Below are positions 4,458 through 53,478 of a DNA stretch of 64,000 nt, one piece after another. Each line of letters begins with the position of its first letter. The stretch's first letter is position 1. A program made the position numbers and the translations under genes. The stretch is taken from contig CM065814.1 of NCBI GenBank assembly GCA_033398695.1, positions 105,712,501 through 105,776,500 on the forward strand, read 5' to 3'. The notes under the pieces were generated by a model. The model saw only the letters and a list, made by a program, of their open reading frames with translations. It did not search any database and was not told the origin of the DNA. This DNA is from Orobanche coerulescens (taxonomy: Eukaryota; Streptophyta; Magnoliopsida; Lamiales; Orobanchaceae).

Positions 4458-4466
4458 TTTATATAG
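4458..4466 (-). promoter_or_regulatory. TATA box of LTR-A (left)
   Basis: CTATATAAA on the minus strand, followed in element orientation by a C/T-rich leader (TCTTCCTCTCTCCGCGG), as expected for a plant LTR promoter. The palindrome array lies directly upstream. Confidence 0.65.
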
Positions 4467-4474
4467 CCGGAGTG

Positions 4475-5002
4475 TTAGCGCACGCTAAAACCTCAAGGTT
4501 AGCGTGCGCTAACGGGATAAGATTCCAAACCTTACCGTTAGCGTCCCGATCCGGTGGCTGGTAATTTAGCCGTTAGCGTACGCTACTCGAAACGTAGCGT
4601 GCGCTAATGACCTCTCGGTAGCGCGCGCTATCGACCAATAGCGTGCGCTACCTGAACATCAGCCGAGTCCAGTAGCCAAATGCCCAAAACTCACCTGACC
4701 CGTTAGCGTGCGCTACCATACAAGCGTAGCGTGCGCTAACTAGCATCTGATTGAGTTCAGTAGTAAACGCCCGATCTTGGACAGTCACACTAGCGCGCTA
4801 CTGAACAACTTAACGTGCGCTAGTCTCCTGACATTAGCGTGCGCTAGACAAGATAGCGTGCGCTAATCCGATAGTCCAGAGGGCTGGGAGCTGAACTGCC
4901 ACTCCCAGGGCTAAATCGTTAGCGTGCGCTATGAAGTAAACGTAGCGTGCGCTACAAGGGGACTTCTAGCGTGCGCTATGCGGAAAAATTAGCGTGCGCT
5001 AG
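4475..5002. repeat. Array of about 17 TTAGCGTGCGCTAA palindromes in LTR-A (left)
   Basis: About 17 exact or near copies of the palindromic word (T)TAGCGTGCGCTA(A), variable at the central bases (GTGC, GCGC, GTAC, GCAC) and irregularly spaced at 10-70 bp. In element orientation the array ends 8 bp upstream of the TATA box at 4458-4466. Spacers are unrelated to each other, so this is not a simple tandem repeat. Confidence 0.93.
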
Positions 5003-5247
5003 ATACGGAATATAAACGGTCTACAACACCAGAATACGGACGAAACATCAGACGGAACACCTCACAACGCATCATAGCATAGAATGAATCCACGGCAACC
5101 CCGAAACGGCGGTTCCGCACAACAATTACGAGAATCAGATCAATAGATGACGGAAGAGTTACACTGAAAGATACACGAGGGTCACTACAATCGAGAAATA
5201 CACCGAAAATAAAAATACAAGGGAAAGAAAAAAATGCGGATATTACA

Positions 5248-5266
5248 TTCTACCCCTCTAAAAATA
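5248..5266 (-). other. Polypurine tract of element A
   Basis: On the minus strand the sequence AGAGGGGTAGAA abuts the first base of the 3' LTR (TGTAATATCC). This is the expected place and composition for second-strand priming in an LTR retrotransposon. Confidence 0.8.
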
Positions 5267-5282
5267 AGTTTCGTCCCGAAAC

Positions 5283-6720
5283 TTAAGAAACAAACAACTC
5301 GGGGTACCTAGCACGCATGCTATCCTCGGTTTCCCAAGTTGCCTCCTCGACACCGTGTCTCGACCACTGCACCTTGACCAAAGGTATGGTCTTATGCCTC
5401 AATCGTTTCTCACGATGCTCCAAAATCTTCAAAGGGCGCTCTTCAAAAGTAACATCCTCGGCGACATCAATCTCACCATAGTCGATGATGTGACTAGGAT
5501 CCGGGACATATTTCCTCAACTGGGAAACATGAAAAACGCTATGAACATGACTCAAGGCCGGAGGTAACGCCAAACGGTATGCCAACCCACCTACTCGCTC
5601 GAGGATCTCAAAGGGGCCGATAAATCTCGGACTCAACTTCCCTTTCTTCCCGAAACGAAAAGCTCCCTTCGTCGGCGACACCTTTAGCAAAACGTGGTCT
5701 CCCACCTCGAATTCCAAAGGTCGACGACGGACGTCGGCATACGACTGTCGACTCGGCGATCAACATCCGTTCCTGAATTACTTCTATCTTCCGCCTCGTC
5801 TCTAAAACGACATCCGGCTCGGTCCCGACCAAATCGGACGCCTCATTCCAACAAATAGGTGATCGACATCGCCGCCCATAAAGTGCCTCATACGGTGCCA
5901 TCCGAATCGACGCGTGCCAACTGTTGTTGTACGTGAATTTGATCAATGGCAAATGCTCCTCCCATCTCTACTCAATCGAGAGCACAAGCACGCAACAAAT
6001 CCTCGAATGTCTGGATAGTGCGTTCCGACTGTCCATCTGACTGGGGATGAAAAGAGGTACTCAAATGTAAACGGGTACCCAATGCCTTATGCACCGCCTT
6101 CCAGAAGTGCGATACAAAACGGCCGTCACGATACGAAACAATAGACTTGAGTCTGTGAAGTCTCTCACAATCTGCGCGTTAAACACACGAGCTAACTTCT
6201 CCGGGCCCCAAGTATCCTTGATGCCCGAAAATGTGCCGACTTGGTCGGGCGATCAACAATCACCCATACCATATTCATGCCCGACCTCGATCTCGGCAAA
6301 CTCGTAACGAAATCCATCGATATATCTTCCCATTTCCATTAGGAGCGAAGTGATCGCAATAACCCGGTCGGTCGATGCTCGATCTTGACCTCGACAAGTC
6401 AAACATCTCGCTACAAGCGTGCGACCTCATCCTTCATATCATTCCACGGAAATTTCTTCTCGAGTCCTTGTACATCTTACTCGAACCGGGATGAACGGAA
6501 TAAGGTGTAGCATGGGCCTCCGTAAGATACTCTGCCTCAACTCTGAGTCGTTCGGCACACAAAGCCGACTACGAAATCTCAAAATACCATCCTCGTGAAT
6601 CACAAACCCAGGAGACTTTCCCTTAAGAGCGTTCTCTCGGATTTGAGTAATCATCGGATTCCCGATTGCTTGACTTAATTTCATCGATCGAGGCAGCGAA
6701 ATCTCTAAAGCACGAAGTTG
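5283..6720 (-). pseudogene. Element A integrase with chromodomain-like C-terminus (broken)
   Basis: The C-terminal part (5283-5717) is open for 144 codons. It holds the GDHVLLKVSP motif of the integrase tail, the GPFEILERVG segment, and a chromodomain-like end containing VQWSRHGVEEATWE, which in chromoviruses targets integration to heterochromatin. Upstream, 5608-5952 holds the typical FTYNNSWHASIRMAPYEALY segment. The catalytic core (about 5950-6500) can be followed through MDFVT, the DGRF region and SFHPQSDGQSERT, but the frame changes several times. It lies last in pol, next to the polypurine tract, as usual for Ty3/gypsy. Confidence 0.85.
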
Positions 6721-6829
6721 CCCGATGGCTCGAGCAACAAAACTTCAACATCTAACTCGATCAAAGCCCGCCGAAGCTCGGTGAGGCGTAAGGATCTCAA
6801 GCATTCGCAACGCAACCGGTTTAGACTCA

Positions 6830-7300
6830 AGGCGTCGGCCACGGCGTTCGCCTTGCCGGATGATAAAGGATTTCGAGGTCATAATCCTTAATCAACTCTA
6901 GCCACCTCCTCTGCCTCATATTCAACTCTCGAGTAAATATGTATTTCGAATTTTATGATCGGTAAAAATCGACATGCGAGCCGAAAAGATAGTGACGCCA
7001 AATCTTTAGCGCAAAAGCAGCCGCTAACTCCAAATCATGAGTAGGGTAGTTAAGCTCAAATGCGGCCTCAAGCGCCTCGATGCATAAGCAATGGTCTTGC
7101 CGTCTTTGCATCAATACGCACCCAAGACCACGACTCGAAGCATCACTATAAAGCGGCAAAACCCTCGTTGCCAAATGACAACGCCAAAGCGGGGCTGAAG
7201 TCAAACGCTTCTTGATTCCTCAAAACTCGGCGCCTCTCGTCATTCCGACGAACTTCTCGGACTTACGGAGCAAGCTGCGTAAGTGGCGGAGCGATTTCGA
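6830..7300 (-). pseudogene. Element A RNase H (broken)
   Basis: Minus-strand similarity to the Ty3-type RNase H that degrades the RNA of the RNA/DNA hybrid. Visible motifs are [15 protein letters not shown] (catalytic Asp region), [12 protein letters not shown] (catalytic Glu) and [12 protein letters not shown], followed by the linker LNMRQRRWLELIKDYDLE and an ADALS motif. The frame breaks around the ADALS linker and again upstream, where the usual A-Y-A-S-R motif is garbled close to CAG/CTG-like positions. Confidence 0.8.
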
Positions 7301-7499
7301 AACCCTCGGCGAACCTACGGTAGTAGCGGCTAAACCCAAGAAACTACGGAGCTCCTTCACATTCTTGGCGTTGCCTAATCCAACACCGCCTCAATCTTAC
7401 GCGGATCCACACGAACCCCCTCGGTGAAATCACGTGACCTAAAAACATCACTTCCTTGACCCGAACACACATTTCGAGAACTTAGCAAAGAGTTGCTCC

Positions 7500-8339
7500 G
7501 TCCTCAAAATGTCTAATACTACCCGCAAATGATGGGCATGCTCTTCCTCATTCCTCGAATAAATAAGAATATAAATCGATAAAGGCAATGACGCACTTAT
7601 CCAAATACTCGATAAAAACTTTGTTCATCAACTGCATGAACACCGCCGGCGCATTAGTTAACCCGAAAGGCATGACTACGAACTCATAATGTCCGTACCT
7701 CGTCCGAAAGGCTGTTTTCGGCACATCGGACTCTCTCACCCGGAGCTGATAGTACCCCGATTTCAAATCAATTTTCGAGAATACCGCAGCTCCCTGCAAC
7801 TGATCGAACAAGTCATCAATTCTCGGCAAAGGTTACTTGTTCTTGATGGTCACTTTGTTTAGTTCGCGATAGTCGATACACAAACGTAGTGAACCATCCT
7901 TCTTCCGCACAAACAGGACCGGTGCGCCCCAAGGCGAGACACTCGGTCGAACATAACCCGACTCAAGAAGCTCACTCAACTGCTTCTTCAACTCTGCCAT
8001 CTCTGAAGGTGCCATGCGATACGGCGCCTTCGAAATCGGAGCCGCGCCCGGCTCTAACTCTATAGCAAACTCAACCTCACGATCCGGTGGCAATCCCGGT
8101 AACTCGTCAGGAAATACATCAGGAAACTCATTAATGACTGGAATCGACGAAAGCTCGACTCCACCATCCTCCGCCTTCAAGGCATAGCACCAATAACCAG
8201 TACACCCCTTTCGCAGGAGACTCATCGCCTTCAAGGCATTAATGATGAATTTCTGATTTCCCCTCCTTCGCCCTGCGAAGGAGTGCTCGGTGCCATCCTC
8301 GGCTAACATGGTGATGATCCTCGTGCGGTAGTTCATGAT
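7500..8339 (-). pseudogene. Element A reverse transcriptase (broken at the catalytic site)
   Basis: The N-terminal half reads [21 protein letters not shown] motifs, [20 protein letters not shown] and [18 protein letters not shown] stop follows at 7833-7835 where a tyrosine codon is usual. Then come [29 protein letters not shown] and [17 protein letters not shown]. The F-I-D-D catalytic motif is damaged: after FID the second Asp is gone and the frame shifts (about 7570-7600), after which SKCVFG-type sequence resumes in another frame. The enzyme cannot be active as written. Confidence 0.85.
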
Positions 8340-8740
8340 TGCGCCATGCCGCTCGATCCAATCATCCCCGAGAATCAAATCCTCACCCTCAATATCCACA
8401 ACAATAAGGTTAGAGGGCCAAGTCCTCTCACAAATAAGTACGAGCAGTCTCGAACCTCCCGATCACCAACGATCCTATCACCGCTAGGAAGCTTAACGAT
8501 GAAGGGTTCACAAGGCATCAAGCAGTCGAGACTCAAAGCGGCGTACACAATCGAAGATATGAGCGAATGCGTAGCACCGGATCGAAAAGCACAGCAGCGG
8601 GATGAGAAAGAATATAAACGGTACTGTCGCCACGGTAGCCTGGATCATCGGCTTTCCGCATCTCATAGATACGCGGGTGGGGTGAGCCGACATGGAAGCT
8701 CCCCCTTAGAGGGCTGACCCGACCTCTCCCGACTAGCACT
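8340..8740 (-). pseudogene. Element A aspartic protease (frameshifted)
   Basis: Retropepsin-like segment on the minus strand. The active-site stretch equivalent to D-S-G-A-T-H-S is recognisable at 8560-8584 but split between two frames by a missing base. The downstream segment reads [20 protein letters not shown] and runs in frame into the reverse transcriptase, matching the usual end of Ty3/gypsy protease (I-L-G-M-D-W-L). It would cleave the gag-pol polyprotein. Confidence 0.7.
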
Positions 8741-8879
8741 CGGCGGAGATTGAGAGCAAATGATCCACTGATTCACACTTGGTTCCCTAAGCTGGAATGG
8801 AAGTCAGGGCACCCACAATTCTCTCCCTCTTAGCACGAAAGCCGCCTTGTGGCCGGTTGGCCACACGATTACATATCAA

Positions 8880-9837
8880 CAAAGGACTCGGGCAATTACG
8901 ACCGATGTGGCACAGGCGCCTGATTAAAACACTTCACCTCTCGAGAAGGGGCAGCGGCCTGTGGGAAACCCGATGATCGAGTGGGCCACCACCATGGAAA
9001 AGTTAGCGGTGAAATTTCTGCTGGCCCCCACCTTTGTGGCCCGAAAAATTCCGCGGACTTACGCTTCTTACTCTCGCGGGCCGCCTCACTCGTCGTCACG
9101 GACATATCGTAAGCAAGGGCCCTGCTCTGGTACTCTTTCAAGGTAGTGCATACGAGCCCCGACATATAGTCCTGAATCGACGACTTCATTAAATGCGGAG
9201 AAATGGAAATTTTGTCGCTCTCCTCGACAACTTGGGTCTTCACATAACCCAACTCCTTGTTAAAATCAGCAATAGCACGAGATACGGGAATATCCAGCGG
9301 TTGAGCGTCATAAAAGCATGTACCGAGCACATGCGGCCGGCCACGGGCAATATTCGGTCTCCATCAATTCTCGAAACTCGGCCACGAAGCGGCATGATCT
9401 TTGGGCCCAACGGCCTCCCACCGATCGTAGCGTCCCTGTGAGAAAGTATTGGGCAATAGGGACTCTCGTTCCTCGGGACGATTAGTGGCAACGAAGACCT
9501 TAGATATCTCCTTGATCCACCCTTCCCGGCCAATCGGGTCTGAAGCTCCCAGCGAGGAGGATGCATCTTGATGACATATTGGAGCCAACGGTCCGCTCGC
9601 CCGATTAGCGTGGGCACGATCCGGGTTACGAACACTTTGAGCTATTGCCGCCATTTGGTTCACCATTTGTTGCATAACGGCCGCAATACCGAGATCAGCA
9701 CGCTCCCGAGAAGAAGCATGGCTATGACGGTCGCCGATCGCCGGCCTCGAAGATCGTGGCGTGGCCGCCCCACCGGCCGCCCACGTCCCGGCCGCGTCCA
9801 CGACCACGACGCGACCACGACCTCTTCCGGCATCCAT
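8880..9837 (-). pseudogene. Element A gag (broken)
   Basis: The N-terminal part starts MDAGRGRGR at 9837. It continues into a retrotransposon gag segment with REGWIKEISKVFVATNRPEE and an RYDRWEAV-type motif. The C-terminal part (9330-8896) has ISPHLMKSSIQDYM and LKEYQSRALAYD. A CCHC zinc knuckle is expected near 8890-8945; its pieces (KCF and CHIGRNC) lie in different frames with a gap between them. Gag would form the virus-like particle. At least two frame changes and the damaged knuckle make it inactive. Confidence 0.75.
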
Positions 9838-10055
9838 CTGGAGTTAAATAAGTAGCAAAAGCCATACGAGGATCGGTCAAGAAAAGAACAATTACAAGTC
9901 GAGAATCAAGTGTACGATACAAGGAATTAATGAAGCAGAGGAAGGAAAACTTACGGACCGGTAAATCTGGAATCATGGCAGCGTGACGATGATGTGCAAA
10001 ACAAAACACCACAAGACCCAATAAACCGACAAGCCTAGGTATCCATAAACCTAGA

Positions 10056-10067
10056 GCTCTGATACCA
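10056..10067 (-). other. Primer binding site of element A (iMet tRNA)
   Basis: On the minus strand TGGTATCAGAGC, complementary to the 3' end of plant initiator methionine tRNA, lies five bases inside the end of the 5' LTR. It fixes the orientation of the element as minus. Confidence 0.9.
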
Positions 10068-10072
10068 TTTTC

Positions 10073-12169
10073 TGTAACACCCTCAAGATATTCGAGGTAT
10101 ATTACAGCGTCGTGAATCCCTATATGGGACCCACCAGGCTGAATAGCATCATACTCATCGACTCACATAAACGACAGAACAATACCATGTCATAAAGATG
10201 CAAAACAGAATAATCCACCCGGTTCAACCGGTCAATATAACATCATCATCCAACACAACATAATAAGCAACAATACAATCCGAACGAACAAGAACCCTTA
10301 AGTACTCGAGTACAACTATTAGTTCAAAAACCACAGAAGATGAAAAGGTAAAAGACACTAAAACGTCACTCGTGCACAATCATCACGCACGGCCATCATC
10401 CGTGTATTGGTCGATGCGCTCGTCTCGAAGAACCTGACCTGAAATTCATAAAAACGAATTTCCCCAAAACGGGTCCCCAGAGGGGTTAGCAATTACGCTA
10501 GTACAAGTAACCAGATGAACAACTTACATCTTACACATATAGTATATACATGCAATCGAGAAAACATAGTTCCAAAACACTCATTTCCGGAAATGCCAAT
10601 ATCAAATCACATTTGTAAAAAAATGCACCACAATTAACCATGGATCCACCCCCTCCGTGAACCCCTACCGAGACCCCGTCGGATCTAACCCGTAGTGGTT
10701 AAAAGCAAGCTCGCGGATCCACCCCTCCGTGGACCCCTACCGAGACCCCGTCGGATCTAACCCGTAGTGAGCATACACACACACACAAGTCTCATGCAAT
10801 ACTACTACGTTAAGATTGTAAGTTCATAAGGATACTTGCCTCGATTAATAGACGGTGACACGAACGGAACGGAAGAATCAAGCACGACCGTGAGGAACCG
10901 ACGAATGAACCTAACGATTCGAATAACACAATCACAACCACTCCTAAACGATTAAGTAAATGGAATACACCCGAAAACCCGCCTACGATTCATGTATATT
11001 CATACAAAAATAACAACGAGGGCGGACCACAACCAAACCCTCTCGATTTCGCAAAACCATGAAAATATACCATGAATCCGTAGGAAAACTAATTATATCA
11101 ACAAGATTAATCATATTCATCATGAATCCACCAACAAAAGCGGAGCGAATCGGAAGGAAAACCCAAAACCCCAAATTATCCAAAAGTAGGGTTCTAAGAG
11201 ATTTCTAGTGGTTTAGGACGAAAGATTCGTGTTGATGTTGATATAATACTCCAAGAACTCAAGAAGGATGATGGATGAGATGATTGGAGGAAGAAATCGC
11301 CAAGAGAACGCCTCGGAATCGCCTTCGCCGCGGAGAGAGGAAGAAATGAGATTTTGTGTTTACTCGGTCAACTCCTGGTTTATATAGCCGGGAGTGTTAG
11401 CGCACGCTAAAACCTCAAGGTTAGCGTGCGCTAACGGGATAAGATTCCAAACCTTACCGTTAGCATCCCGATCCGGTAGCTGTAATTTAGCCCTTAGCAT
11501 AAGCTACTCGAAACGTAGCGTGCGCTAATGACCTCTCGGTAGCGCGCTATCGACCAATAGCGTGCGCTACCTGAACATCAGCCGAGTCCAGTAGCCAAAT
11601 GCCCAAAACTCACCTGACCCGTTAGCGTGCGCTACCATACAAGCGTAGCGTGCGCTAACTAGCATCTGATTGAGTTCAGTAGTAAACTGCCCAGTACTGG
11701 ATAGTCACACTAGCGCGCGCTACTGAACAACTTAACGTGTGCTAGTCTCCTGACATTAGCGTGCGCTAGACAAGATAGCGTGCGCTAATCCGATAGTCCA
11801 GAGGGCTGAGAGCTGAACTGCCACTCCCAGGGCTAAATCGTTAGCGTGCGCTACGAAGTAAACGTAGCGTGCGCTACAAGGGGACTTCTAGCGTGCGCTA
11901 TGCGGAAAAATTAGCGTGCGCTAGATACGGAATATAAACAGTCTACAACACCAGAATACGGACGAAACATCAGACGGAACACCTCACAACGCATCATAGC
12001 ATAGAATGAATCCACGGCAACCCCGAAACGGCAGTTCCGCACAACAATTACGAGAACCAGATCAATAGATGACGGAAGAGTTACACTGAAAGATACACGA
12101 GGGTCGCTACAATCGAGAAATACACCGAAAATAAAAATACAAGGGAAAGAAAAAAATGCGGATATTACA
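10073..12169 (-). repeat. LTR-A, right copy (5' LTR of element A)
   Basis: The pair of 3164-5247 with the same ends. Long stretches are identical. Most differences are one- to three-base changes near CAG/CTG trinucleotides or C/G runs, for example around 3510-3530 versus 10410-10435. It ends at ATATTACA followed directly by the target duplication ATTAC. Confidence 0.92.
11397..11924. repeat. Palindrome array in LTR-A (right)
   Basis: The same array as 4475-5002, with the same words in the same order. The TATA box CTATATAAA is at 11379-11387 on the minus strand, 9 bp downstream of the array in element orientation. Confidence 0.92.
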
Positions 12170-13281: not shown

Positions 13282-14038
13282 GGTTGAAAGAGAAGAAACG
13301 AGGTGGAACTTCTCTAAAATGACAAAATGACAGGTCTTACATATATATAAGTTTTCATGCATTACGTACGTTACATGAACCTCTTAACGTACGTAATGTC
13401 CTTTACGTATGTTATCCGTCTTCGATAGCGTACGTAACGACAATCCAGAACCTACTGCCTCATTTCGTGCCTTGTGTTACATATGTAACACCTGTGCCAT
13501 AGCGTACGTAACACAGAGTTGACTTCCGACAGTAAAATATACGTTTAACGTACGTAATGTACCACTCGTAACATACGTTAACCAAGAGTTGACTCCTCCT
13601 GTCCACATCTGCGCCGAAAGTTGCCGACACCGGGCCCACCTGCCGACCACAACTCGGACCTATTCGATTCTCTCCATAATGTACGTTATGTACTCAACCT
13701 AACGTACATTAAGCTCGTTTCGTTGCGTACGTAAGCTCCTCTGCTTAGCGTACGCTATGCTTTCACCTTTACGTACGTAAGCTCCTATGTTTAACGCACG
13801 TAATGGCTTTTATACTTAGCCATTTACACTGATCTTGCTCGTCGTCTCAATATACCGAATACGTATACCCAATAAACTATATCCTCAAGTGTAATTGTCG
13901 ATCAAGTACGACAATTATACCAATACGGATATCTCAGTCCTTCATTTATTTTATCCATACTTCACAGATTCCACGCTGTACAACATAACTCGGATAAAAT
14001 AACATTAAACAACAGTAGTAGAAATTCTGGATACTACA
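13282..14038 (-). repeat. LTR-G fragment (minus-oriented, left side truncated)
   Basis: Ends on the right at ATACTACA. It contains a TATA box (13341-13350), a palindrome array (13362-13803), and a right part homologous in inverted orientation to 27483-27751 (shared words such as AATTGTCG, CGACAATT and the GTCGTCTCAATATACC region). It also shares CTTAGCCATTT with LTR-C. The leader and U5 side are missing, cut at the CACTA fragment. Confidence 0.6.
13362..13803. repeat. Array of TTACGTACGTAA-type palindromes in LTR-G
   Basis: More than a dozen degenerate copies of AACGTACGTAA, with TAGCGTACGCTA and TTACATATGTAA variants, irregularly spaced. The first copy lies 11 bp from the TATA box at 13341-13350. 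This is the same arrangement as in the other LTR families, but with a different central word. Confidence 0.8.
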
Positions 14039-19746: not shown

Positions 19747-20760
19747 TGTTGGGAAAAATACCGACAAACGTCACGTCACAACGAATAAAGCGGAACCTCG
19801 TTTGACAACTTCCCACTCTTCAATCGTAACTTTGTGGTTACCGACGAGTAGAGCAACAATTACAACTCGATAAAAATAATACAAATGATATTCGAAAGTA
19901 ATAAATAACGAGACACAATTTTAAAGTGGAAAACCCCTCAAGACGAGAGTAAAAACCACGGGACCGAAGCCGCTTAAAATCCACTATCACCAATACACAC
20001 AAATACACAATCGTCCCTAATACAAACTAGGGGTATACACCAATCGTCAAATACTTGGTAATAAATGTTCTTCAAGTATTTGGAATCAACAACAACAAGA
20101 TCGGGAAAAGAAACAACCGTAAATAGCTTACACAAAGAGCTAATGAAATACCCCAACTTCCGGACTCAAAATCTCGATCTACACCGGTGAAAAGATTTGC
20201 CCAATAGCTACCAAGCTCTTGTCAAAAGATCACGACGATCCGACCGATAAATCTCCGGAAAAATGAAGAATTGTATTTCTCTCTCTTGTTTCTCTCTCTA
20301 TCTCTCTCTTGTTCTTCTCTCAAGTGTGTATGTGATAATATGTTGAAATCCCGTGTGAAAGACAGCATAAAAAGATTCCCATTTGCAGGTTTGACCCGTG
20401 TGCCGCGGCCCGGGCAGTGCAAAATTGCGCCCAGGACTCGACAGGGAGCCGCGGCCTGGCCGGCAGGGGCCGCGGCCCGAGTCTGACGCTCGAGCAAATG
20501 CAGGGCGCGGCTCGGCGAGATGTCTGCGCGGCCCAAGTGATCGACAGCGCTCGGCAGGGAGAGGCTCGACAGGTGTGCTCGGCAGGGGCCGCGGCCCAGA
20601 GTACAGTCTCGGCCGATGCTGAGTGACTTCGGCGGGGGCCGCGGCTCGGCAGCTGTGTGCCGCGGCCCAGCAGTGCTGGTGAGGAAAAACGTCTTTTCAA
20701 GCGTAGTGCCACGGCCCGGAGGGTTTGTGCCGTGGCCCGGAGTCCGGTCGACTCCGAAAA
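19747..20760 (-). repeat. LTR-H (minus orientation, right end not resolved)
   Basis: Starts TGTTGGGAAAA on the plus strand next to the primer site. It contains a leader with (CT)n stretches (20270-20320), a TATA-like TTTTTATG (20366-20374, minus strand), then a GC-rich array of CCGCGG words (20398-20740). The right end is cut by a fusion to copia integrase sequence near 20760-20811. Several GC-rich open frames over the array are artefacts of composition. Confidence 0.55.
20398..20740. repeat. Array of GTGCCGCGGCCC words in LTR-H
   Basis: About ten copies of a word centred on the palindrome GCCGCGGC, flanked by variable GC-rich spacers. It lies about 25 bp upstream of the TATA-like box in element orientation. 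The same word forms the array of element D at 59516-59615, although the two LTRs are otherwise unrelated. Confidence 0.75.
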
Positions 20761-29120: not shown

Positions 29121-29533
29121 TTACGGCCGTAACTAGTCAGGCATTACGGCCGTAACATGCATTCGTTGGCTCAAGGTTGTTTTAGACGAAGGTGAGTTAC
29201 GGCCGTAAGGATTGTCGGATACGGCCGTAACATGCGTTCGTTGTTTTCAGGACAGTTCGGATGAATAGGACTTACGGCCGTAAGGGTTGCGGCATACGGC
29301 CGTAAGATGAGGCTGGTACGGCAGTAAGGCTTGGCCGGTTATGGCCGTACGTTTCGAGCAGGGTGCCCGGTCAGTTTCGACGAAGGTGTCATACGCCCTT
29401 AAGTCTTGCTGAGTACGGCCGTAACATTCTAGTTACGCACGTAAGGCATGTGCGGTACGGACGTATGACTGTCGGCAGGTGTTCTGGACGAGGGCGAGTT
29501 ACGCCTGTATGAGGTGGCTGGTTACGGCCGTAA
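29121..29533. repeat. Array of TTACGGCCGTAA palindromes in LTR-F
   Basis: About 15 exact or near copies of the 12-bp palindrome TTACGGCCGTAA with unrelated 10-40-bp spacers. The last copy (29522-29533) ends 10 bp before the TATA box TATTTAAA. The placement is the same as in LTR-A, B, C, D, G and H, with a different word. Confidence 0.92.
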
Positions 29534-31031: not shown

Positions 31032-33365
31032 TGTAACACCCCCAAGTTATTCAGGGTATATTACAGTGCCGTGAGCCCCGCCGTGGGACCCACAAGGCTA
31101 AACATACGCGGAACTATAAACTTGACCGAGAAGGTCTACATACAATGGAAAGAAAGACGATACAAATGGTCTTCAAAACCATAACCAATGAAACCATATA
31201 CATCACTGCACAAATCAATACCTCGGCAACACAGGCCGGAACATCAAGGAAACTGAAATACAATACTCGAGTATTTAACAATCCATTCCAGTACAACAAC
31301 ACTGAATGGAGGAATCCAAGAAAAATAATCGGAGACAAGACACAGTATCACACTTGCCCATCATCTTCATGCCGACCCGGTACCCGCCTGTCCGCTCTCC
31401 TGGAACCTGAAATACATGAAACGTATTTCCCCCATGAAGGGGTTAGCCGTCGAATAGCTAGTGCAAGTATATCAATATGAAACACAATACTCCTCGACAA
31501 TAAAGTAAATGTAACCGTCAATTCATCAATTCAAGACTAGTATTCCGGAATAACTAAAATCTCATAGTGTCACATCAAGACGTATGTGAATGCCGTAGAA
31601 ATGGTTCGTTCATGTCATACGCCGTTACATGTAGGAATGCCGTAGAAATGGTTCGTTCATTACATGCCAACAATACATATATGAATGCCGTAAAAATGGT
31701 TCGTTCATAATATGCCATCAATATATCTATGAATGCCGTCAAAACGGTTCGTTCATGATGTGCCATCAATATTTCTTACTTTCAAAGTCGAGAACGTACA
31801 ATCATAAATGTATACTTGCCTTGAATAGTCGACGACGCAACGAACGGAATGGAAAGTCACCGACGAATGCTAGGAACCATCGAAACCGAACCTAACGATT
31901 CGAAGAATACAATCACAACCGATTCTAAACGAATACGGAATTGGAATACACCCGGAAACCCGCCTACGATTCATGTATATTCGTATAAAAACGATAACGA
32001 GGGCGGACCACAACCAAACCCTCTCGATTCCGTAAAAATCACGAAATATACCATGAATCCATAGGGAAACTAAGAATACCAACAAGATTAATCATATTCA
32101 TCATGAATTACTCAGCAAAACCGAAAGAATCGGACAAAAACGCGAAAATCCCCAAATCTCCCCAAAAGTAGGGTTCTAGAGATCTAACCTTGATTCGCTG
32201 GATCGAAGGACATTATAGGATGATTGATCAGTGATATAAACTCAGAAACTTCATGGATTTGTTGTTTAACAACATGGCTTCATCTCCTCCAAAGATCTAG
32301 TCGCGGACCGGAGAGAAAGGAAATGAAAAATGAATGAAAAAGTGGCTGCTCTGTCATTTATATACTGGGCCGGAACTAGCGTGCGCTAGCCTTCCTGGAC
32401 TAGCGTGCGCTATCGGCGATGCTCGGTCCGAGACTCTCGGCCATGGCCCGCATGACCGGCACCACCGATTAGTGCCGACCATGACTCGTCGCGACTCCCG
32501 CTAGCGTGCGCTACGGCCGGAAGCCTGCGCGCGCTAGCCGACCTATCCAGTAGCCTCTGGACTAGCAAGCTCATCCCGGTAACGTACGCTAGTCGGCCGA
32601 CAGCGTGCGCTACCCCTGCCGGTCAGCGTGCGCAACGACCGGCAGTAGCGTGCGCTACCTGCCGATCCTACCCGAGTCCAAAACCTCAGAATCCCTCTGC
32701 CCAGGCCCGATAGCGTCTGGCTGGTGACTCGGCAGCGTGCACTACCTTTGCCGAGCTAGCGCGCAGCGTCCCGGCCGTGGCGTGCGCTATGCCGGTTCTG
32801 CCGTGCTGCTTTCGGTCGATGCCCGCCATCGTCGGCGAGAACCCGCAACCATCCTGGCGGTGCCCGACCACCAGGGCTCGACGACTCGATTTCCGAAAAC
32901 GTACGGAACGAACACGACGAAAAGTTCGCGGACGACATCAACGACTCGAAATGAAGACGTAATGCAATAATTAATCATACGCGACCAAGAAAAGGGTTGA
33001 GACAACGAATACAGATACGAATACCCATAATTTTGGGTAAATTACAAAATGGCCCAAAATGCCCGAAAATCACGATACGTGATCGAATAACCAAACCGAA
33101 GTTCACAACACTTCTAACAAAGTTAAACGGACTTACAGGAAACTCGAAACAGCAGTTTAGAACGAGATTCGCAAGAATCGAACTCAAGCGCGGAAAAGTC
33201 GCTGAAAAGCACGGAACTCAACATAACGACACCGAAACGAACTCGGATGTCAAAAAGTGTAGAATTAATCATTCTCATAGTGACGAAACGGTCCCAAGCG
33301 AGTTGTCAAAACGGACTTCCGCCAAAAATAGAAAGTTACCGGAAATCAAAATTACGGGTATTACA
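31032..33365 (-). repeat. LTR-B copy 1
   Basis: Plus strand TGTAACACCC to GGGTATTACA, 2334 bp, followed by the polypurine complement TTCTACCCTCC. It contains a four-copy tandem repeat (47-48-bp units with GAATGCCGT, copies starting 31588, 31635, 31683 and 31731), a TATA box (32356-32365, minus) and the palindrome array 32377-32790. It is near-identical to copies 2 and 3 outside the GC-rich array. Confidence 0.9.
32377..32790. repeat. TAGCGTGCGCTA array in LTR-B copy 1
   Basis: About ten exact or degenerate copies of TAGCGTGCGCTA with GC-rich spacers. The first copy is 11 bp from the TATA box ATTTATATAC. Copies at 39005-39424 and about 45613-46032 lie at the same place in LTR-B 2 and 3, where spacer sequence differs more than in the rest of the LTR. 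Confidence 0.88.
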
Positions 33366-35619: not shown

Positions 35620-37124
35620 TGTAACACCCCAGATCCTCCTGGGAATATTACACGCCGTAAACCCTTCTCACAAGGATTTACCAGGCTAAGCACAATTTTC
35701 CACGTCATTTCAAAAATGCTAAAAAGACCGATGACGGTAATATTTTTCAAATATTAAGAAAAAATCATTTTCCAAATACCGTCAAAACGATCAAGGCCAA
35801 AATGCCAAAAACTCAGTTTAGGGAATCGGTTTTACAAAATAAAATTCAGTTGGCAAAATACCAAAAGCCCTTTCAAAATACTAACGCAGCGGATAAAAGT
35901 ACAGTCCAATTTATGCATTTTCATTGAAATAAGACGAACATCAAAATATACGATTCCCAACATACTCCCTCCCAAGTAGTAATCCTTAAAAAAAATGAAC
36001 CACTATCAAAGGGATACGAGGACTACCATGTATGGACGAACCACGAAGAAGAATAACTTGAACTCCATTCCAAGAATCATCAAAAACTTCAAGAACAATA
36101 CTTAAATCCGAGCTCTCCATCTTAATCTTGTTTGAGAGAATCATCTCTCAATGTTTAGGAACTTCAAGTACTTCCCAAGGTTCTCTCTATTGAATGAAGG
36201 AAGGAGAATGGACAAAATGCCTCTCAGCACTCGTCTATCCTCTCTATAAAACACATCACTAGCGCGCGCTAGACTTTATATTTAGCGTGCGCTACATGAC
36301 TAGCGTGCGCTATCCTTCCTTGATAGCGTGCGCTATCGGGCAGTCCAGAAGCTACTACATTGCTTCGAAATTCATCTAACGTACGTAATGCCCATGCATT
36401 AGCGTACGCTAACAGGCGTTGACTTGATACAGTGAAATGCTCCGTAGCGTGCGCTATTCTTCGACCTTAACGCGCGCTAATCGTCGTTGACTTGCTACAG
36501 TATCGTGCCCCCACATGCCGAAAGCATCCGCGATTATCGGGATTCCTTTGACCGATATGGAATTAGCGTGCGCTAATCATACTGTTTTAGCGTGCGCTAG
36601 CTCTACACGACAAGCACTCGTTGACCTTATCTGGACACGCGTCGAACATGGCCGGGTCCACCCGCCGAAAGCTAAGATTCCATTATTGGCGATCTGGTGT
36701 TAGCGTGCGCTAACCAACATGCGTTAGCGTGCGCTAACTGAATATAAAAATCAACCTGGGCCTACCTGTCGGCCACCTTCCGAAACTACCCCAGCAAGTC
36801 GTTACGTACGTTAGGGGTCCTCCTTAGCGTACGTAACCGAATCTCTTAGCGTGCGCTAAGTATGCACCGTAGCGTACGCTAAGTATATATCTTAGCGCGC
36901 GCTAGGCATACCTTATAGCGTGAGCTAACGTAGCTGTACTTAGCCATTTTCCGCTATTCTCTACCAACATCTCGACATACCAAACGATCATACGGCACAA
37001 TGAATACATATACGCATTCAGCAACATTGTCATACGTTCACATCATCCTCAAGCACAATTATCCATCAACGACATCCAACAAATAAACGAAAAAAAATAT
37101 ATCCGGAAAAATCAGGGTATTACA
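35620..37124 (-). repeat. LTR-C copy 1
   Basis: Plus strand TGTAACACCCCAGATCC to CAGGGTATTACA, 1505 bp, followed by a polypurine complement CTCTACCCCCCC. TATA box CTCTATAAAA at 36242-36251 (minus). The mixed palindrome array runs 36260-36928. No target duplication flanks it, and both borders are authentic LTR/internal junctions, so it is not a simple nested solo LTR. Confidence 0.88.
36260..36928. repeat. Mixed palindrome array in LTR-C copy 1
   Basis: About twenty words: TTAGCGTGCGCTAA, TAGCGCGCGCTA, TTAGCGTACGCTAA, TTACGTACGTTA and degenerate forms. The first copy starts 8 bp from the TATA box. It mixes the word of LTR-A/B with the word of LTR-G. Confidence 0.9.
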
Positions 37125-37659: not shown

Positions 37660-40001
37660 TGTAACACCCCCAAGTTATTCAGGGTATATTACAGCGCCGT
37701 GAGCCCCGCCGTGGGACCCACAAGGCTAAACATACGCGGAACTATAAACTTGACCGAGAAGGTCTACATACAATGGAAAGAAAGACGATACAAATGGTCT
37801 TCAAAACCATAACCAATGAAACCATATACATCACTGCACAAATCAATACCTCAGCAACACAGGCCGGAACATCAAGGAAACTGAAATACAATACTCGAGT
37901 ATTTAACAATCCATTCCAGTACAACAACACTGAATGGAGGAATCCAAGAAAAATAATCGGAGACAAGACACAGTATCACACTTGCCCATCATCTTCATGC
38001 CGACCCGGTACCCGCCTATCCGCTCTCCTGGAACCTGAAATACATGAAACGTATTTCCCCCATGAAGGGGTTAGCCGTCGAATAGCTAGTGCAAGTATAT
38101 CAATATGAAACATAATACTCCTCGACAATAAAGTAAATGTAACCGTCAATTCATCAATTCAAGACTAGTATTCCGGAATAACTAAAATCTCATAGTGTCA
38201 CATCAAGACGTATGTGAATGCCGTAGAAACGGTTCGTTCATATCATACGCCATTACATGTAGGAATGCCGTAGAAACGGTTCGTTCATTACATGCCAACA
38301 ATACATATATGAATGCCGTCAAAACGGTTTGTTCATAATATGCCATCAATATATCTATGAATGCCGTCAAAATAGTTCGTTCATGATATGCCATCAATAT
38401 TTCTTACTTTCAAAGTCGAGAACGTACAATCATAAATGTATACTTGCCTTGAATAGTCGACGACGCAACGAACGGAATGGAAAGTCACCGACGAATGCTA
38501 GGAACCATCGAAAACGAACCTAACGATTCGAAGAATACAATCACAACCAATTCTAAACGAATACGGAATTGGAATACACCCGGAAACCCGCCTACGATTC
38601 ATGTATATTCGTATAAAAATGACAACGAGGGCGGACCACAACCAAACCCTCTCGATTCCGTAAAAATCACGAAATATACCATGAATCCATAGGGAAACTA
38701 AGAATACCAACAAGATTAATCATATTCATCATGAATTACTCAGCAAAACCGAAAGAATCGGACAAAAACGCGAAAATCCCCAAATCTCCCCAAAAGTAGG
38801 GTTCTAGAGATCTAACCTTGATTCGCTAGATCGAAGGACGTTATAGGATGATTGATCAGTGATATAAACTCAGAAACTTCATGGATTTGTTGTTTAACAA
38901 CATGGCTTCATCTCCTCCAAAGATCTAGTCGCGGACCGGAGAGAAAGGAAATGAAAAATGAATGAAAAAGTGGCTGCTCTGTCATTTATATACTGGGCCG
39001 GAACTAGCGTGCGCTAGCCTTCCTGGACTAGCGTGCGCTATCGGCCAGTATCGGTCCAGCACTCTCGGCCATGGCCCGCATGACCCGGCACCACCGATTA
39101 ATTCTGCCGACCATGACTCGTCCGCCCGACTCCCGCTAGCGTGCGCTACGGCCGGAAGCCTGCGCGCGCTAGCCGACCTATCCAGTAGCCTCTGGACTAG
39201 CAAGCTCATCCCGGTAACGTACGCTAGTCGGCCGACAGCGTGCGCTACCCTCGCCGGGTCGGCGCAACGACCGGCAGAGAGCGTGCGCCACTCCGCCGAT
39301 CCTACCCGAGTCCAAAACCTCGTAATCCTCCGCCTGTGCCCGATAGCGTGCAGATGGCTGACTCGACAGCGTGCACTACACTGCCGAGCTAGCGCGCGCA
39401 GCGTCCCGGCCGTAGCGTGCGCTATGCCGGTTCCTGCCGTGCCTGCTCGGTCAGTGCCCGCCATCGTCCGGCCAGAACCCGCAACCATCCGGCCAGTGCC
39501 CGACCACCAGGGCTCGACGACTCGATTTCCGAAAACGTACGGAACGAACACGACGAAAAGTTCGCGGACGACATCAACGACTCGAAATGAAGACGTAATG
39601 CAATAATTAATCATACGCGACCAAGAAAAGGGTTGAGACAACGAATACAGATACGAATACCCATAATTTTGGGTAAATTACAAAATGGCCCAAAATGCCC
39701 GAAAATCACGATACGTGATCGAATAACCAAACCGAAGTTCACAACACTTCTAACAAAGTTAAACGGACTTACAGGAAACTCGAAACAGCAGTTTAGAACG
39801 AGATTCGCAAGAATCGAACTCAAGCGCGGAAAAGTCGCTGAAAAGCACGGAACTCAACATAACGACACCGAAACGAACTCGGATGTCAAAAAGTGTAGAA
39901 TTAATCATTCTCATAGTGACGAAACGGTCCCAAGCGAGTTGTCAAAACGGACTTCCGCCAAAAATAGAAAGTTACCGGAAATCAAAATTACGGGTATTAC
40001 A
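37660..40001 (-). repeat. LTR-B copy 2
   Basis: 2342 bp, the middle LTR of the array. It has the same ends, minisatellite (from 38216), TATA box (38984-38993) and palindrome array (39005-39424) as copy 1. The long open frames over 38962-39641 run through the GC-rich array on both strands and have no protein similarity. Confidence 0.9.
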
Positions 40002-42249: not shown

Positions 42250-43738
42250 TGTAACACCCCAGATCCTCCTGGGAATATTACACGCCGTAAACCCTTCTCA
42301 CAAGGATTTACCAGGCTAAGCACAATTTTCCACGTCATTTCAAAAATGCTAAAAAGACCGATGACGGTAATATTTTTCAAATATTAAGAAAAAATCATTT
42401 TCCAAATACCGTCAAAACGATCAAGGCCAAAATGCCAAAAACTCAGTTTAGGGAATCGGTTTTACAAAATAAAATTCAGTTGGCAAAATACCAAAAGCCC
42501 TTTCAAAATACTAACGCAGCGGATAAAAGTACAGTCCAATTTATGCATTTTCATTGAAATAAGACGAACATCAAAATATACGATTCCCAACATACTCCCT
42601 CCCAAGTAGTAATCCTTAAAAAAAATGAACCACTATCAAAGGGATACGAGGACTACCATGTATGGACGAACCACGAAGAAGAATAACTTGAACTCCATTC
42701 CAAGAATCATCAAAAACTTCAAGAACAATACTTAAATCCGAGCTCTCCATCTTAATCTTGTTTGAGAGAATCATCTCTCAATGTTTAGGAACTTCAAGTA
42801 CTTCCCAAGGTTCTCTCTATTGACTGAAGGAAGGAGAATGGACAAAATGCCTCTCAGTACTCGTCTATCCTCTCTATAAAACACATCACTAGCGCGCTAG
42901 ACTTTATATTTAGCGTGCGCTACATGACTAGCGTGCGCTATCCTTCCTTGATAGCGTGCGCTATCGCGATCGAAGCTACTACATTGCTTCGAAATTCATC
43001 TAACGTACGTAATGCCCATGCATTAGCGTACGCTAACAGGCGTTGACTTGATACAGTGAAATGCTCAGTAGCGTGCGCTATTCTTCGACCTTAACGCGCG
43101 CTAATCGTCGTTGACTTGCTACAGTATCGTGCCCCCACATGCCGAAAGCATCCGCGATTATCGGGATTCCTTTGACCGATATGGAATTAGCGTGCGCTAA
43201 TCATATCGTTTTAGCGTGCGCTAGCTCTACACGACAAGCACTCGTTGACCTTATCTCGACACGCGTCGAACATGGCGGGTCCACCCGCCAAAGCTAAGAT
43301 TCCATTATTGGCGATCTGGTGTTAGCGTGCGCTAACCAACATGCGTTAGCGTGCGCTAATCAATATAAAATCAACTCAGGCCTACCTGCCGCCACCTTCC
43401 GAAACTACCCCAAGTCGCTACGTCGTTAGGGTCCTCCTTAGCGTACGTAACCGAATCTCTTAGCGTGCGCTAAGTATGCACCGTAGCGTACGCTAAGTAT
43501 ATATCTTAGCGCGCGCTAGGCATACCTTATAGCGTGAGCTAACGTAGCTGTACTTAGCCATTTTCCGCTATTCTCTACCAACATCTCGACATACCAAACG
43601 ATCATACGGCACAATGAATACATATACGCATTCAGCAACATTGTCATACGTTCACATCATCCTCAAGCACAATTATCCATCAACGACATCCAACAAATAA
43701 ACGAAAAAAAATATATCCGGAAAAATCAGGGTATTACA
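42250..43738 (-). repeat. LTR-C copy 2
   Basis: 1489 bp, same ends and layout as copy 1. TATA box at 42872-42881 and array 42890-43542. The array region differs from copy 1 at several CAG/CTG-containing positions and has short deletions; the flanks are nearly unchanged. Confidence 0.88.
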
Positions 43739-44269: not shown

Positions 44270-46602
44270 TGTAACACCCCCAAGTTATTCAGGGTATATT
44301 ACAGCGCCGTGAGCCCCGCCGTGGGACCCACAAGGCTAAACATACGCGGAACTATAAACTTGACCGAGAAGGTCTACATACAATGGAAAGAAAGACGATA
44401 CAAATGGTCTTCAAAACCATAACCAATGAAACCATATACATCACTGCACAAATCAATACCTCAAGAACACAGCCGGAACATCAAGGAAATCAAATACAAT
44501 ACTCGAGTATTTAACAATCCATTCCAGTACAACAACACTGAATGGAGGAATCCAAGAAAAATAATCGGAGACAAGACACAGTATCACACTTGCCCATCAT
44601 CTTCATGCCGACCCGGTACCCGCCTATCCGCTCTCCTGGAACCTGAAATACATGAAACGTATTTCCCCCATGAAGGGGTTAGCCGTCGAATAGCTAGTGC
44701 AAGTATATCAATATGAAACATAATACTCCTCGACAATAAAGTAAATGTAACCGTCAATTCATCAATTCAAGACTAGTATTCCGGAATAACTAAAATCTCA
44801 TAGTGTCACATCAAGACGTATGTGAATGCCGTAGAAACGGTTCGTTCATATCATACGCCATTACATGTAGGAATGCCGTAGAAACGGTTCGTTCATTACA
44901 TGCCAACAATACATATATGAATGCCGTCAAAACGGTTTGTTCATAATATGCCATCAATATATCTATGAATGCCGTCAAAATAGTTCGTTCATGATATGCC
45001 ATCAATATTTCTTACTTTCAAAGTCGAGAACGCATAATCATAAATGTATACTTGCCTTGAATAGTCGACGGCGCAACTAACGAAAAGGAAAGTCACCGAC
45101 GAATGCTAGGAACCATCGAAAACGAACCTAACGATTCGAAGAATACAATCACAACCAATTCTAAACGAATACGGAATTGGAATACACCCGGAAACCCGCC
45201 TACGATTCATGTATATTCGTATAAAAATGACAACGAGGGCGGACCACAACCAAACCCTCTCGATTCCGTAAAAATCACGAAATATACCATGAATCCATAG
45301 GGAAACTAAGAATACCAACAAGATTAATCATATTCATCATGAATTACTCAGCAAAACCGAAAGAATCGGACAAAAACGCGAAAATCCCCAAATCTCCCCA
45401 AAAGTAGGGTTCTAGAGATCTAACCTTGATTCGCTAGATCGAAGGACGTTATAGGATGATTGATCAGTGATATAAACTCAGAAACTTCATGGATTTGTTG
45501 TTTAACAACATGGCTTCATCTCCTCCAAAGATCTAGTCGCGGACCGGAGAGAAAGGAAATGAAAAATGAATGAAAAAGTGGATGCTCTGTCATTTATATA
45601 CTGGGCCGGAACTAGCGTGCGCTAGCCTTCCTGGACTAGCGTGCGCTATCGGCCAGTATCGGCCCAGCACTTTCGGCCATGGCCCGCATGACCCGGCACC
45701 ACCGACCAATTCTGCCGACCATGACTCGTCCGCCCGACTCCCGCTAGCGTGCGCTACGGCCGGAATCCTGCGCGCGCTAGCCGACCTGTCCAGTAGCCTC
45801 TGGACTAGCAAGCTCATCCCGGTAACGTACGCTAGTCGGCCGATAGCGTGCGCTACCCCTGCCGGTCAACGTGCGCAATGACCGGCAGTAGCGTGCGCTA
45901 CCTGCTGATCCTACCCGAGTCCGTAACCTCGTAATCCTCTCGCCTGTGCCCGAACAGACGCTAGCCGATTTGACAGGCAGGCGCTACATCGCTGAAGCGC
46001 GCGCAGCTGCCCGGCCAGAAGCGTGCGCTTATGCCGGTTCCTCCCGTGCTCGCCGGCTGCCCGCCATCGTCCGGCCGTAACCCGCAACCGTCCGGCCGGT
46101 GCCGACCACTGTGGCTCGACGACTCGATTTCAAAACGCGTTTTAACGAACACGACGAAAAGTTCGCGGACGACATCAACGACTCGAAATGAAGACGTAAT
46201 GAAATAATTAATCATACGCGACCAAGAAAAGGGTTGAGACAACGAATACAGATACGAATACCCATAATTTTGGGTAAATTACAAAATGGCCCAAAACGCC
46301 CGAAAATCACGATACGTGATCGAATAACCAAACCGAAGTTCACAACACTTCTAACAAAGTTAAACGGACTTACGGGAAACTCGAAACAGCAGTTTAGAAT
46401 GAAATTCGCAAGAATCGAACTCAAGCGCGGAAAAGTCGCTGAAAAGCACGGAACTCAACATAACGACACCGAAATGAACTCGGATGTCAAAAAGTGTAGA
46501 ATTAATCATTCTCAGGGTGACGAAACGGTCCCAAGCGAGTTGTCAAAATGGACTTCCGCCAAAAATAGAAAGTTACCGGAAATCAAAATTACGGGTATTA
46601 CA
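44270..46602 (-). repeat. LTR-B copy 3 (right end of array)
   Basis: 2333 bp, ending GGGTATTACA and followed directly by the duplication TGTGT. TATA box 45592-45601 and palindrome array from 45613. The array's right half (45940-46120) is the most diverged of the three copies. In element orientation this is the outermost 5' LTR. Confidence 0.9.
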
Positions 46603-46607
46603 TGTGT

Positions 46608-51531: not shown

Positions 51532-52332
51532 TCTAATATCCGCAATTTCGGATTTCCGGTAATTTTCTTTTTTCGGCGAAGGTCCGTTTTGACGACTCGC
51601 TTGGGACCGTTTCATCATTCTGAGAATGATTAATTCTGCACTTTTTGTCATCCGAGTTCGTTTCAGTATTGTTTTGTTGAGTCCCGTGTTTCTTAACCAT
51701 TTTTCCGCACTCGAGTTCGATTCTTGTGAATCTCGTCCGAAATTACTATTTCGAGTTTCCCGTAAGTCCGTTTAACTTTGTTAGACGTGTTGTGAACTTC
51801 GGTTTGGTTATTCGATCACGTATCGTGATTTTCGGACGTTTTGGGCCATTTTCGTAATTTCCCAAAGTTTGGGGTAATTATCTTCCGTTGTCAAATTTCG
51901 AGCCTTCGGGTGGTCAGAATCGTGTGTTCTCTTAGCTCTTAGATTCGTCTTTGCGAGTACTTCGTAACCGTATCTTCGATTCGTATTCAGGTTCGGGTTT
52001 CGGGGTCGTTCGGATCGTCGTTGTGATTCTTCATTTCGTGCACGGAGGTCAGCCGGGCCGACTCGCGAAACGACCCTGAAAACGGCGCTGCCGAGCGCCG
52101 TGTCCTGCGCCGGGTTGTCCAGGACCGGAAGCCTGCCGAGACACGGCCGAGACACCCGATGCTGGTGTGGGCCGTTTGCTGCGCCGTGTCCGGCAGGCGT
52201 TTAAATATGGCCGAGCAGTCGTTTTTTTTTCACTCGTTTCATTTCCTATCCTTCCTGTCCGCGGCTGGATTCTTTGGGAAGTCGAAGACATGTTGTTATA
52301 CTATGAATCCACGAAGTTTTGGAGTTCATAAC
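51532..52332 (+). repeat. LTR-I, left part (plus orientation)
   Basis: Starts TCTAATATCC, a one-base change from the TGTAATATCC start of related LTRs. The first 300 bp are the inverted counterpart of the right end of LTR-B and LTR-D (shared GACGACTCGCTTGGGACCG). A GC-rich word array (52050-52196), a TATA box (52200-52208) and a leader similar to LTR-B follow. It is interrupted at 52333 and resumes at 56833. Confidence 0.7.
52050..52208 (+). promoter_or_regulatory. GC-rich word array and TATA box of LTR-I
   Basis: Words GGCGCTGCCGAGCGCC, GCGCCGTGTCC and CCGAGACACGGCCGAGAC form inverted pairs directly upstream of TTTAAATAT (52200-52208). The U3 sequence on the left is almost that of LTR-B, but the word in the array is entirely different. 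Confidence 0.55.
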
Positions 52333-53459: not shown

Positions 53460-53478
53460 ATTGGCGCTAGAAGAAGGG
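53460..53478 (+). other. Primer binding site of the gag-only element
   Basis: ATTGGCGCTAGAAGAAGGG directly after the LTR end. TTGGCGC-type sites are common in Tat-like Ty3/gypsy elements. I do not assign the tRNA. Confidence 0.6.

What the first reader, a model, noticed from the sequence alone, without database searches (positions are those of the whole stretch)
4458..5002. Palindromic-word arrays sit directly upstream of the TATA box in at least eight LTR types
In LTR-A, B, C, D, E, F, G and H an array of a 10-14-bp CpG-containing palindrome begins a few to about 25 bp upstream of the TATA box: A 4475/4466, B 32377/32365, C 36260/36251, F 29533/29544, G 13362/13350, D 59516/59505, E 50932/50914, H 20400/20374. 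Four main words are used: TTAGCGTGCGCTAA, TTACGGCCGTAA, TTACGTACGTAA and GTGCCGCGGCAC. LTR-I has a looser GC-rich word at the same place. Spacers are unrelated, so selection or a copying process acts on the word and not on a tandem unit. I infer a proximal-promoter module that binds a dimeric factor, sets CpG methylation, or forms hairpins. I know of no named description of it.
Basis: seen in the sequence. Interest (0 to 1): 0.88.

Follow-up and report, generated by a model that had tools for sequence, protein, structure and literature searches.

The report
Phased palindrome arrays in retrotransposon promoters
In this large, likely plant, genome the ends of many retrotransposons carry rows of 12-base palindrome-like words most often spaced 23 bases apart and often ending 16-18 bases before a TATA-like box, and two related elements differ in the words' letters along one shared row while its spacing is nearly unchanged, which likely reflects a paired DNA-binding protein whose target changes between families.

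Summary
CpG-bearing palindrome-like words cluster upstream of TATA-like boxes in the eight LTR types; one word, TTAGCGTGCGCTAA, occurs 228,904 times in the 3.65-Gb genome (reversed control 3). In 25 evenly placed 10-kb regions not chosen by word, 14 carry arrays.

Words are phased, most often at 23 bp, although short-spacer letters are near random. The last word lies 16-18 bp from TATA in six of eight window LTRs, and 15-18 bp in 9 of 26 sampled arrays against about 0.6 expected. LTR-C and LTR-G share one homologous array whose words have switched letters together.

New here are a Ty3/gypsy host (shown by domains for LTR-A, by shared termini for others), the strict register, and concerted word change. 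The eight types are also less independent than claimed.

Best reading: promoter sites for a dimeric protein (0.5). Hairpin/small-RNA, anti-silencing and mere copying remain open; nothing functional was testable.

The parts
4475..5001 (-). LTR-A array, words TAGCGCACGCTA (sense); TATATAAA 16 bp from last word centre; element A 3164-12169
11397..11923 (-). second LTR copy of the A array (about)
5248..10068 (-). internal region of element A: RVT_1, RNase H, SH3_Tf2-1 and a below-cutoff chromodomain (Ty3/gypsy)
13362..13810 (-). LTR-G array, words of TTACGTACGTTA type; homologous to array C
20400..20740 (-). LTR-H array, GCCGCGGC-core words with some 21-bp spacings; Copia-like LTR end and PBS at 19734-19755; weak TATA
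29121..29533 (+). LTR-F array, word TTACGGCCGTAA; LTR start TGTAATACCC at 28771
32377..32790 (-). LTR-B array, copy 1 (LTR 31032-33365)
39005..39420 (-). LTR-B array, copy 2 (about; LTR 37660-40001)
45613..46025 (-). LTR-B array, copy 3 (about; LTR 44270-46602)
36260..36928 (-). LTR-C array, copy 1 (LTR 35620-37124, inside the internal region of B)
42890..43541 (-). LTR-C array, copy 2 (about)
50932..51150 (-). LTR-E array; weak TATA 27 bp away; LTR end TGTAACACCC at 50009
52030..52200 (+). LTR-I, looser GC-rich words at the same place; no word array shown here
59516..59610 (-). LTR-D array, only four words, GTGCCGCGGCAC type, spacing 21, 42, 21; LTR 57250-59985

Best explanation
These are arrays of 12-bp, CpG-bearing, more or less palindromic words set most often 23 bp apart in retrotransposon LTRs, ending 16-18 bp before a TATA-like box in six of eight types, and they likely act as promoter sites for a dimeric, probably host-encoded, DNA-binding protein. 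Shown: clustering before TATA; the 23-bp register with near-random short spacers; the near-fixed last-word distance; a kept frame T..CG..CG..A; and a concerted change of the other letters between the homologous arrays of LTR-C and LTR-G. Inferred, untested: that a dimer binds each word, that neighbours cooperate (hence the register), that this drives transcription, and that the word is re-coded family by family because the factor changes or because a new word escapes silencing aimed at the old one.
For: Position: 9.95 against 1.32 near-palindromes per kb in U3 and the rest of the LTR; last word centre to TATA 16, 18, 17, 17, 16, 18 in A, B, C, D, F, G; in the sample 9 of 26 arrays at 15-18 bp, chance 0.022 per array. 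Register: 28 of 87 gaps are 23 bp, at most 9 at any value in 2,000 random placements; 98 of 204 gaps in the genome sample. In C against G, 8 of 9 intervals near 23 bp agree exactly although most short spacers are under 50% identical. The dyad ends at the word: the next outer pair is matched in 23 of 82 words, permuted 25.3. Frame kept in 14 C/G word pairs: outer T and A 14 and 14, CpG letters 13, 11, 12, 13. Single-word hairpins are weak (-0.8 to -4.1 kcal/mol for five window-type words; two Sirevirus words -9.8 and -7.3).
Against: No binding, expression, methylation or transcript data. Mirrored position 4/11 covaries within arrays (67/82 against 58.6 +/- 2.2, P 0.0007; 176/204 against 168.4 +/- 3.0, P 0.016), which also fits base pairing. 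The strong CA orientation is not needed by a symmetric dimer. 14 of 26 sampled arrays have no TATA-like word within 40 bp of an end by my pattern, and three of the 12 with one have it at 7, 26 and 28 bp. E and H lie at 27 and 32 bp with weak TATA; D has only four words and, with H, favours 21 bp. 23 bp is not a whole number of helical turns. The absence of gaps in short spacers (0 per 105 columns against 5 events per 198 in the flank) is too small a sample to prove constraint.
Confidence: 0.5

Rival explanations
1. The arrays are kept, or tolerated, as RNA or DNA secondary structure: U3 is present at the 3' end of the element transcript, the words pair with each other, and the structure feeds small RNAs or serves packaging, as proposed for maize Sirevirus palindromes.
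For: Folding energy z -4.2 to -6.2 in 7 of 8 arrays against -0.9 to -2.0 in 3 control segments (30 shuffles each); covariation at position 4/11; small RNAs map to palindrome clusters of maize Sireviruses (passages).
Against: H is -1.8. Any set of repeated dyads folds this way. Single words form weak hairpins, the dyad does not extend past 12 bp, and five of six mirrored positions in the sample show no covariation at P < 0.05. The register and TATA distance are not explained.
Confidence: 0.2
2. The words are targets of a sequence-specific anti-silencing protein, as VANC proteins bind motif arrays of VANDAL transposons; the word changes in step with that protein.
For: Motif density, same orientation and synchronous change of motifs match the description of VANC targets (passages); words are far more uniform within than between arrays (chi2 265.2, shuffled maximum 90.5); C/G switch.
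Against: VANC is element-encoded; in element A the pol domains run to about 50 bp from the 3' LTR and leave no room there for a further gene, and no other domain was found in B or D internals or beside E. Four of the eight low arrays in the uniformity test are simply TTACGGCCGTAA arrays.
Confidence: 0.13
3. The arrays are inherited tandem repeats of a 23-bp unit, kept uniform by copying and unequal exchange, with little or no function.
For: Fixed period; one prevailing word orientation; uniform words within an array; paired-word unit repeated in F; layout 23-18-23-about 52 next to TATA in C, G and the sampled arrays L026:3061 and L027:927.
Against: Spacers that should be copied along are near random (within-family 0.314, shuffled 0.289 +/- 0.009, maximum of 1,000 shuffles 0.325, so only slightly above chance). 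CpG letters and outer T/A are kept best while other word letters changed in step. The last word keeps its distance to TATA across different words.
Confidence: 0.17

Closest known systems
Palindromic repeated motifs (RMs) of Sirevirus LTRs, Ty1/copia (Bousios et al. 2010, PMC2829016: abstract and passages, section 9; Bousios et al. 2016 not held, known from passages in PMC10760457 and PMC5311732)
   Same: Many copies of a short CpG-bearing dyad word, element-specific in letters, clustered in the upper half of the LTR just upstream of the TATA box.
   Different: Host element is Ty3/gypsy for LTR-A; core is CGNNCG or GCCGCGGC, and the CGG-CCG core occurs only in F; strict 23-bp register and homologous arrays with switched words are not mentioned in the parts I read. 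The paper calls RMs Sirevirus-specific and absent from classic Ty1/copia elements.
VANC target arrays of VANDAL transposons (Hosaka et al. 2017, PMC5735166, passages; PMC10398659, passages)
   Same: Dense short motifs in one orientation in non-coding DNA; related families differ in motif; motifs described as evolving synchronously.
   Different: DNA transposons; motif YAGTATTAY is not a dyad; protein is element-encoded; no TATA position.
LTR part replacement in RLG_Cereba/RLG_Quinta (PMC11302176, passages)
   Same: LTR conserved from near TATA onward and different upstream, as between A, B and D here.
   Different: There a segment is thought to come from another element; in C/G the array stayed and its letters changed.
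Palindrome row in viral-collection contig L002
   Same: Words like TTACGTACGTAA at about 22-bp steps with unrelated spacers.
   Different: A non-plant mobile-element contig; before an ORF with below-cutoff CopG/RHH matches; an analogue only.

Membership tests
Sirevirus RM boxes | Carried by a Ty1/copia Sirevirus | tested here: not met
   LTR-A flanks gypsy-type RVT_1 and SH3_Tf2-1; A-E share the LTR end TGTAACACCC and A-D, F the start TGTAATA(C/T)CC. H has Copia-like ends but no pol found beside it.
Sirevirus RM boxes | At least eight dyad copies in the LTR upstream of TATA | tested here: met
   A 16, B 13, C 18, E 9, F 11, G 15, H 9 words by a loose definition that includes some marginal words; D only 4.
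Sirevirus RM boxes | CGG-CCG core | tested here: not met
   Only F (TTACGGCCGTAA) has it; A, B, C, E, G have CGNNCG without it, D and H have GCCGCGGC.
Sirevirus RM boxes | Array forms a CpG island | not tested
   Words carry two CpG each; no CpG-island program was run.
VANC target arrays | Element encodes the binding protein | tested here: not met
   No room after pol in A and no further Pfam domain in A, B or D internals; one autonomous element only, so a limited test.
VANC target arrays | Motifs in one orientation that change together | tested here: met
   CA:TG 65:6 and between-array heterogeneity; C/G switch.
Ty3/gypsy chromovirus LTR | Chromodomain at the end of integrase | tested here: inconclusive
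   Chromo match in A at E 0.0056, 17 bits, below the 25.1 cutoff, in the expected place after SH3_Tf2-1. Lineage name Tekay/Del is recalled, from no call.
Simple tandem repeat | Whole unit, spacer included, repeated | tested here: not met
   Spacer identity within families 0.314 against 0.289 shuffled; partly met in F.
Dimeric transcription-factor array | A dimer binds each word and activates transcription | not testable with these tools
   No binding or expression data on hand.

The most novel reading that the evidence does not exclude
Gypsy-type retrotransposons carry a re-codable promoter address: a phased row of dyad words whose register and CpG frame are fixed but whose other letters are rewritten along the whole row, family by family, in what extrapolates to some hundreds of thousands of arrays in one genome, recording a continuing contest between element promoters and a host dimeric factor or silencing pathway.
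Probability: 0.33. Interest if true: 0.82.

Novelty: new variant of a known kind. Interest (0 to 1): 0.62.

Why it matters
Palindrome arrays before TATA were described as a Sirevirus speciality of unknown use. Finding them in a gypsy-type element, with a 23-bp register, a near-fixed distance to TATA and whole-array word change, gives sharp predictions (helical phasing, dimer binding, a family-specific factor) and a very large natural series in which to watch binding-site specificity change in step at many sites. With about 229,000 exact copies of one word, any host factor that reads it would face a very large number of sites.

Tried and rejected
Array hypermutation: differences between tandem copies 1 and 2 are concentrated in the B and C arrays and in two other patches (in the A LTRs they are not), but multi-base patches sit on CAG/CTG sites (78% against 17% expected in units 1/2, 68% against 19% in B copies 2/3, 38% against 13% in A). 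They look like consensus errors; nanopore miscalls at methylated CHG are a recalled lead, not tested. No hypermutation claim is made.

One array shared between D (gypsy-type ends) and H (Copia-like ends): score 69 beats dinucleotide shuffles (maximum 52) but not the word-preserving null (maximum 73, z 3.4): inconclusive. Of 36 array pairs only C/G (z 10.4) and, barely, A/E (90 against a maximum of 87) exceed all 200 shuffles.

Methylation decay as cause of the C/G switch: at the four positions tallied (4, 7, 8, 11) 29 of 30 differences are G>A or C>T from C to G, yet the CpG letters are better kept (49 of 56) than those positions (26 of 56); the reverse of simple CpG decay.

Organism: not identified. 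Size 3.646 Gb. One Copia RT search (120 of 7,600 hits listed) gave hits named from many flowering plants and unnamed best hits. Genome-wide counts of the other words, and of word pairs by spacing, were not obtained.

Literature: nine searches were answered; none of their listings, nor the passages I read in eight papers, describes such arrays in Ty3/gypsy chromoviruses. Subscription papers are mostly not held, so this is weak evidence of absence.

Full report
What was checked. A scan for near-palindromes found 170 in the window against 75.2 +/- 8.9 in Markov sequence; 88 are clustered and 82 scattered, close to chance. Of 15 clusters 13 fall in LTR arrays (several are second or third copies of A, B and C), one in a transposon-like stretch at 644-890, and one at 16621-16652 is probably chance. 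In one LTR per type the density is 9.95 per kb in U3 against 1.32 per kb in the rest (50 in 5,027 bp against 13 in 9,823 bp). D, G and H contribute 1, 3 and 2 because their words are mostly imperfect dyads.

The elements. LTR-A flanks an internal region of 4.8 kb with gypsy-type reverse transcriptase, RNase H and Tf2-1-like SH3, and a below-cutoff chromodomain after them: Ty3/gypsy, likely a chromovirus. A, B, C, D and E share the LTR end TGTAACACCC; A-D and F share the LTR start TGTAATA(C/T)CC; a PBS like TGGTATCAGAGC (name recalled) lies beside A, B, D and H. The lineage of B-G rests on these termini and on shared LTR segments; frames of the B and D internals and of the stretch before E gave no Pfam domain. 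H has Copia-like ends, and no domain was found in the minus frames beside it. B consists of three LTRs and two internals, and C sits inside both internals. A/B, B/D and B/LTR-I share segments at 75-88%. The eight types are therefore several related families plus H. Another LTR element in the window, X (52330-56829, with a gag domain), has no palindrome cluster.

Register. Distances between successive words peak at 23 bp: 28 of 87 gaps, 44 of 87 at 22-24, against at most 9 and 18 in 2,000 random placements. D (21, 42, 21) and H (three of eight gaps) favour 21. Short-spacer letters are near random: identity 0.314 within families, 0.314 between neighbours, 0.283 between families, 0.289 +/- 0.009 shuffled. 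The small excess is about 2.7 standard deviations.

Distance to TATA. From the last word centre to the TATA-like box: A 16, B 18, C 17, D 17, F 16, G 18; E 27 and H 32 with weak words.

Genome sample. TTAGCGTGCGCTAA occurs 113,783 + 115,121 times in 3,646,015,169 bp; read backwards, 3 + 0. Twenty-five evenly placed 10-kb regions were then taken without regard to words: 20 on C14 and one each on C1, C3, C5, C7 and C9. In the first 20, a scan without preset words found clusters of the same words, and otherwise AT microsatellites and other AT-rich or mixed dyads. A scan with preset words in all 25 gave 30 rows, three arrays being listed twice, hence 27 arrays, in 14 of 25 regions; one Markov control gave none. 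98 of 204 gaps are 23 bp (88 of 185 without the doubles, my subtraction). No array of the D/H word type was found in the sample. Of the 26 arrays of the broad word set, 12 have a TATA-like word within 40 bp of an end (distances 7, 16, 17, seven times 18, 26, 28); 9 lie at 15-18 bp, chance 0.022 per array. 9 of those 12 have TGTAATA(C/T)CC upstream, and 4 of the other 14 have it within 1 kb. Some of the 14 show TATA-like variants or a TATA further out, and a threefold repeat in L022 shows none. If 27 arrays per 250 kb were typical the genome would hold some 390,000; this is an extrapolation from 0.007% of it.

Concerted word change. Arrays C and G are homologous beyond their words (score 112; word-preserving null 56.4 +/- 5.3, maximum 76). 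In 14 homologous word pairs the outer T and A are identical 14 and 14 times and the CpG letters 13, 11, 12 and 13 times; positions 3, 4, 7, 8, 11 and 12 are identical 6, 4, 5, 10, 7 and 8 times. The typical change is TAGCGCACGCTA to T(T/A)ACGTACGT(T/A)A. Three C words already have the G-type letters at position 4, and one G word is TAGCGTACGCTA, so the change is not all-or-none. Spacing is equal in 9 of 13 intervals and in 8 of the 9 near 23 bp. Across 26 sampled arrays the share of G-C at position 4/11 is 0.75 or more in 16, 0.25 or less in 8 and 0.46 and 0.56 in two; heterogeneity chi2 265.2 against at most 90.5 with words shuffled. Four of the 8 low arrays (L024, L025, L029, L035) are wholly or partly TTACGGCCGTAA arrays, so part of this is the difference between main words.

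Mechanism. A dimer-bound promoter array explains the dyad, its 12-bp limit, the register and the TATA distance. Secondary structure explains the dyad and the folding excess (z -4.2 to -6.2 in 7 of 8 arrays, H -1.8, controls -0.9 to -2.0), and covariation at position 4/11 is a point in its favour, but not the register. An anti-silencing binder explains orientation and concerted change, but no gene for it fits in A. Copying alone explains orientation and period but not near-random spacers with kept words. Nothing done here separates these by function.

Known work. Bousios et al. 2010 (PMC2829016; abstract, passages and section 9) describe palindromic RMs upstream of TATA in Sirevirus LTRs, forming CpG islands, with possible regulatory roles, and call them Sirevirus-specific. 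The 2016 follow-up is known only from passages in citing papers. PMC10760457 also says that cis-regulatory regions of TEs are often arrays of repeats, sometimes palindromic. Hence a new variant of a known kind.

Noticed in passing
window 392-930: Transposon-like stretch with ends like TAGGGGTGTTCAAAA and many TTCGGATATCCGAA palindromes: a palindrome array outside any LTR.
   Followed up: no
window 31032-46602: Tandem LTR-internal-LTR-internal-LTR element with TSD-like TGTGT at 31027-31031 and 46603-46607; another LTR (C) inside both internals.
   Followed up: partly
window 31032-44269 and LTR pair A: Multi-base differences between near-identical copies sit on CAG/CTG sites far more often than expected; possible consensus errors at methylated sites.
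   Followed up: partly
window 48197-49335: Tandem repeats of about 200 bp.
   Followed up: no
L002 5760-5935: In a viral-collection contig, a row of TTACGTACGTAA-like words at about 22-bp steps before an ORF with below-cutoff CopG/RHH matches.
   Followed up: partly
L001 12696-12730: A pair of TAGCGYRCGCTA palindromes about 23 bp apart in a 72% GC viral-collection contig.
   Followed up: no
whole window: CpG observed/expected is 1.20 in the window and 0.93 in the first 20 sampled regions: little CpG loss in repeat-rich DNA.
   Followed up: no
L022 1009-7921: Three similar arrays about 3.3-3.6 kb apart with shared flanks and no TATA-like word beside them.
   Followed up: no
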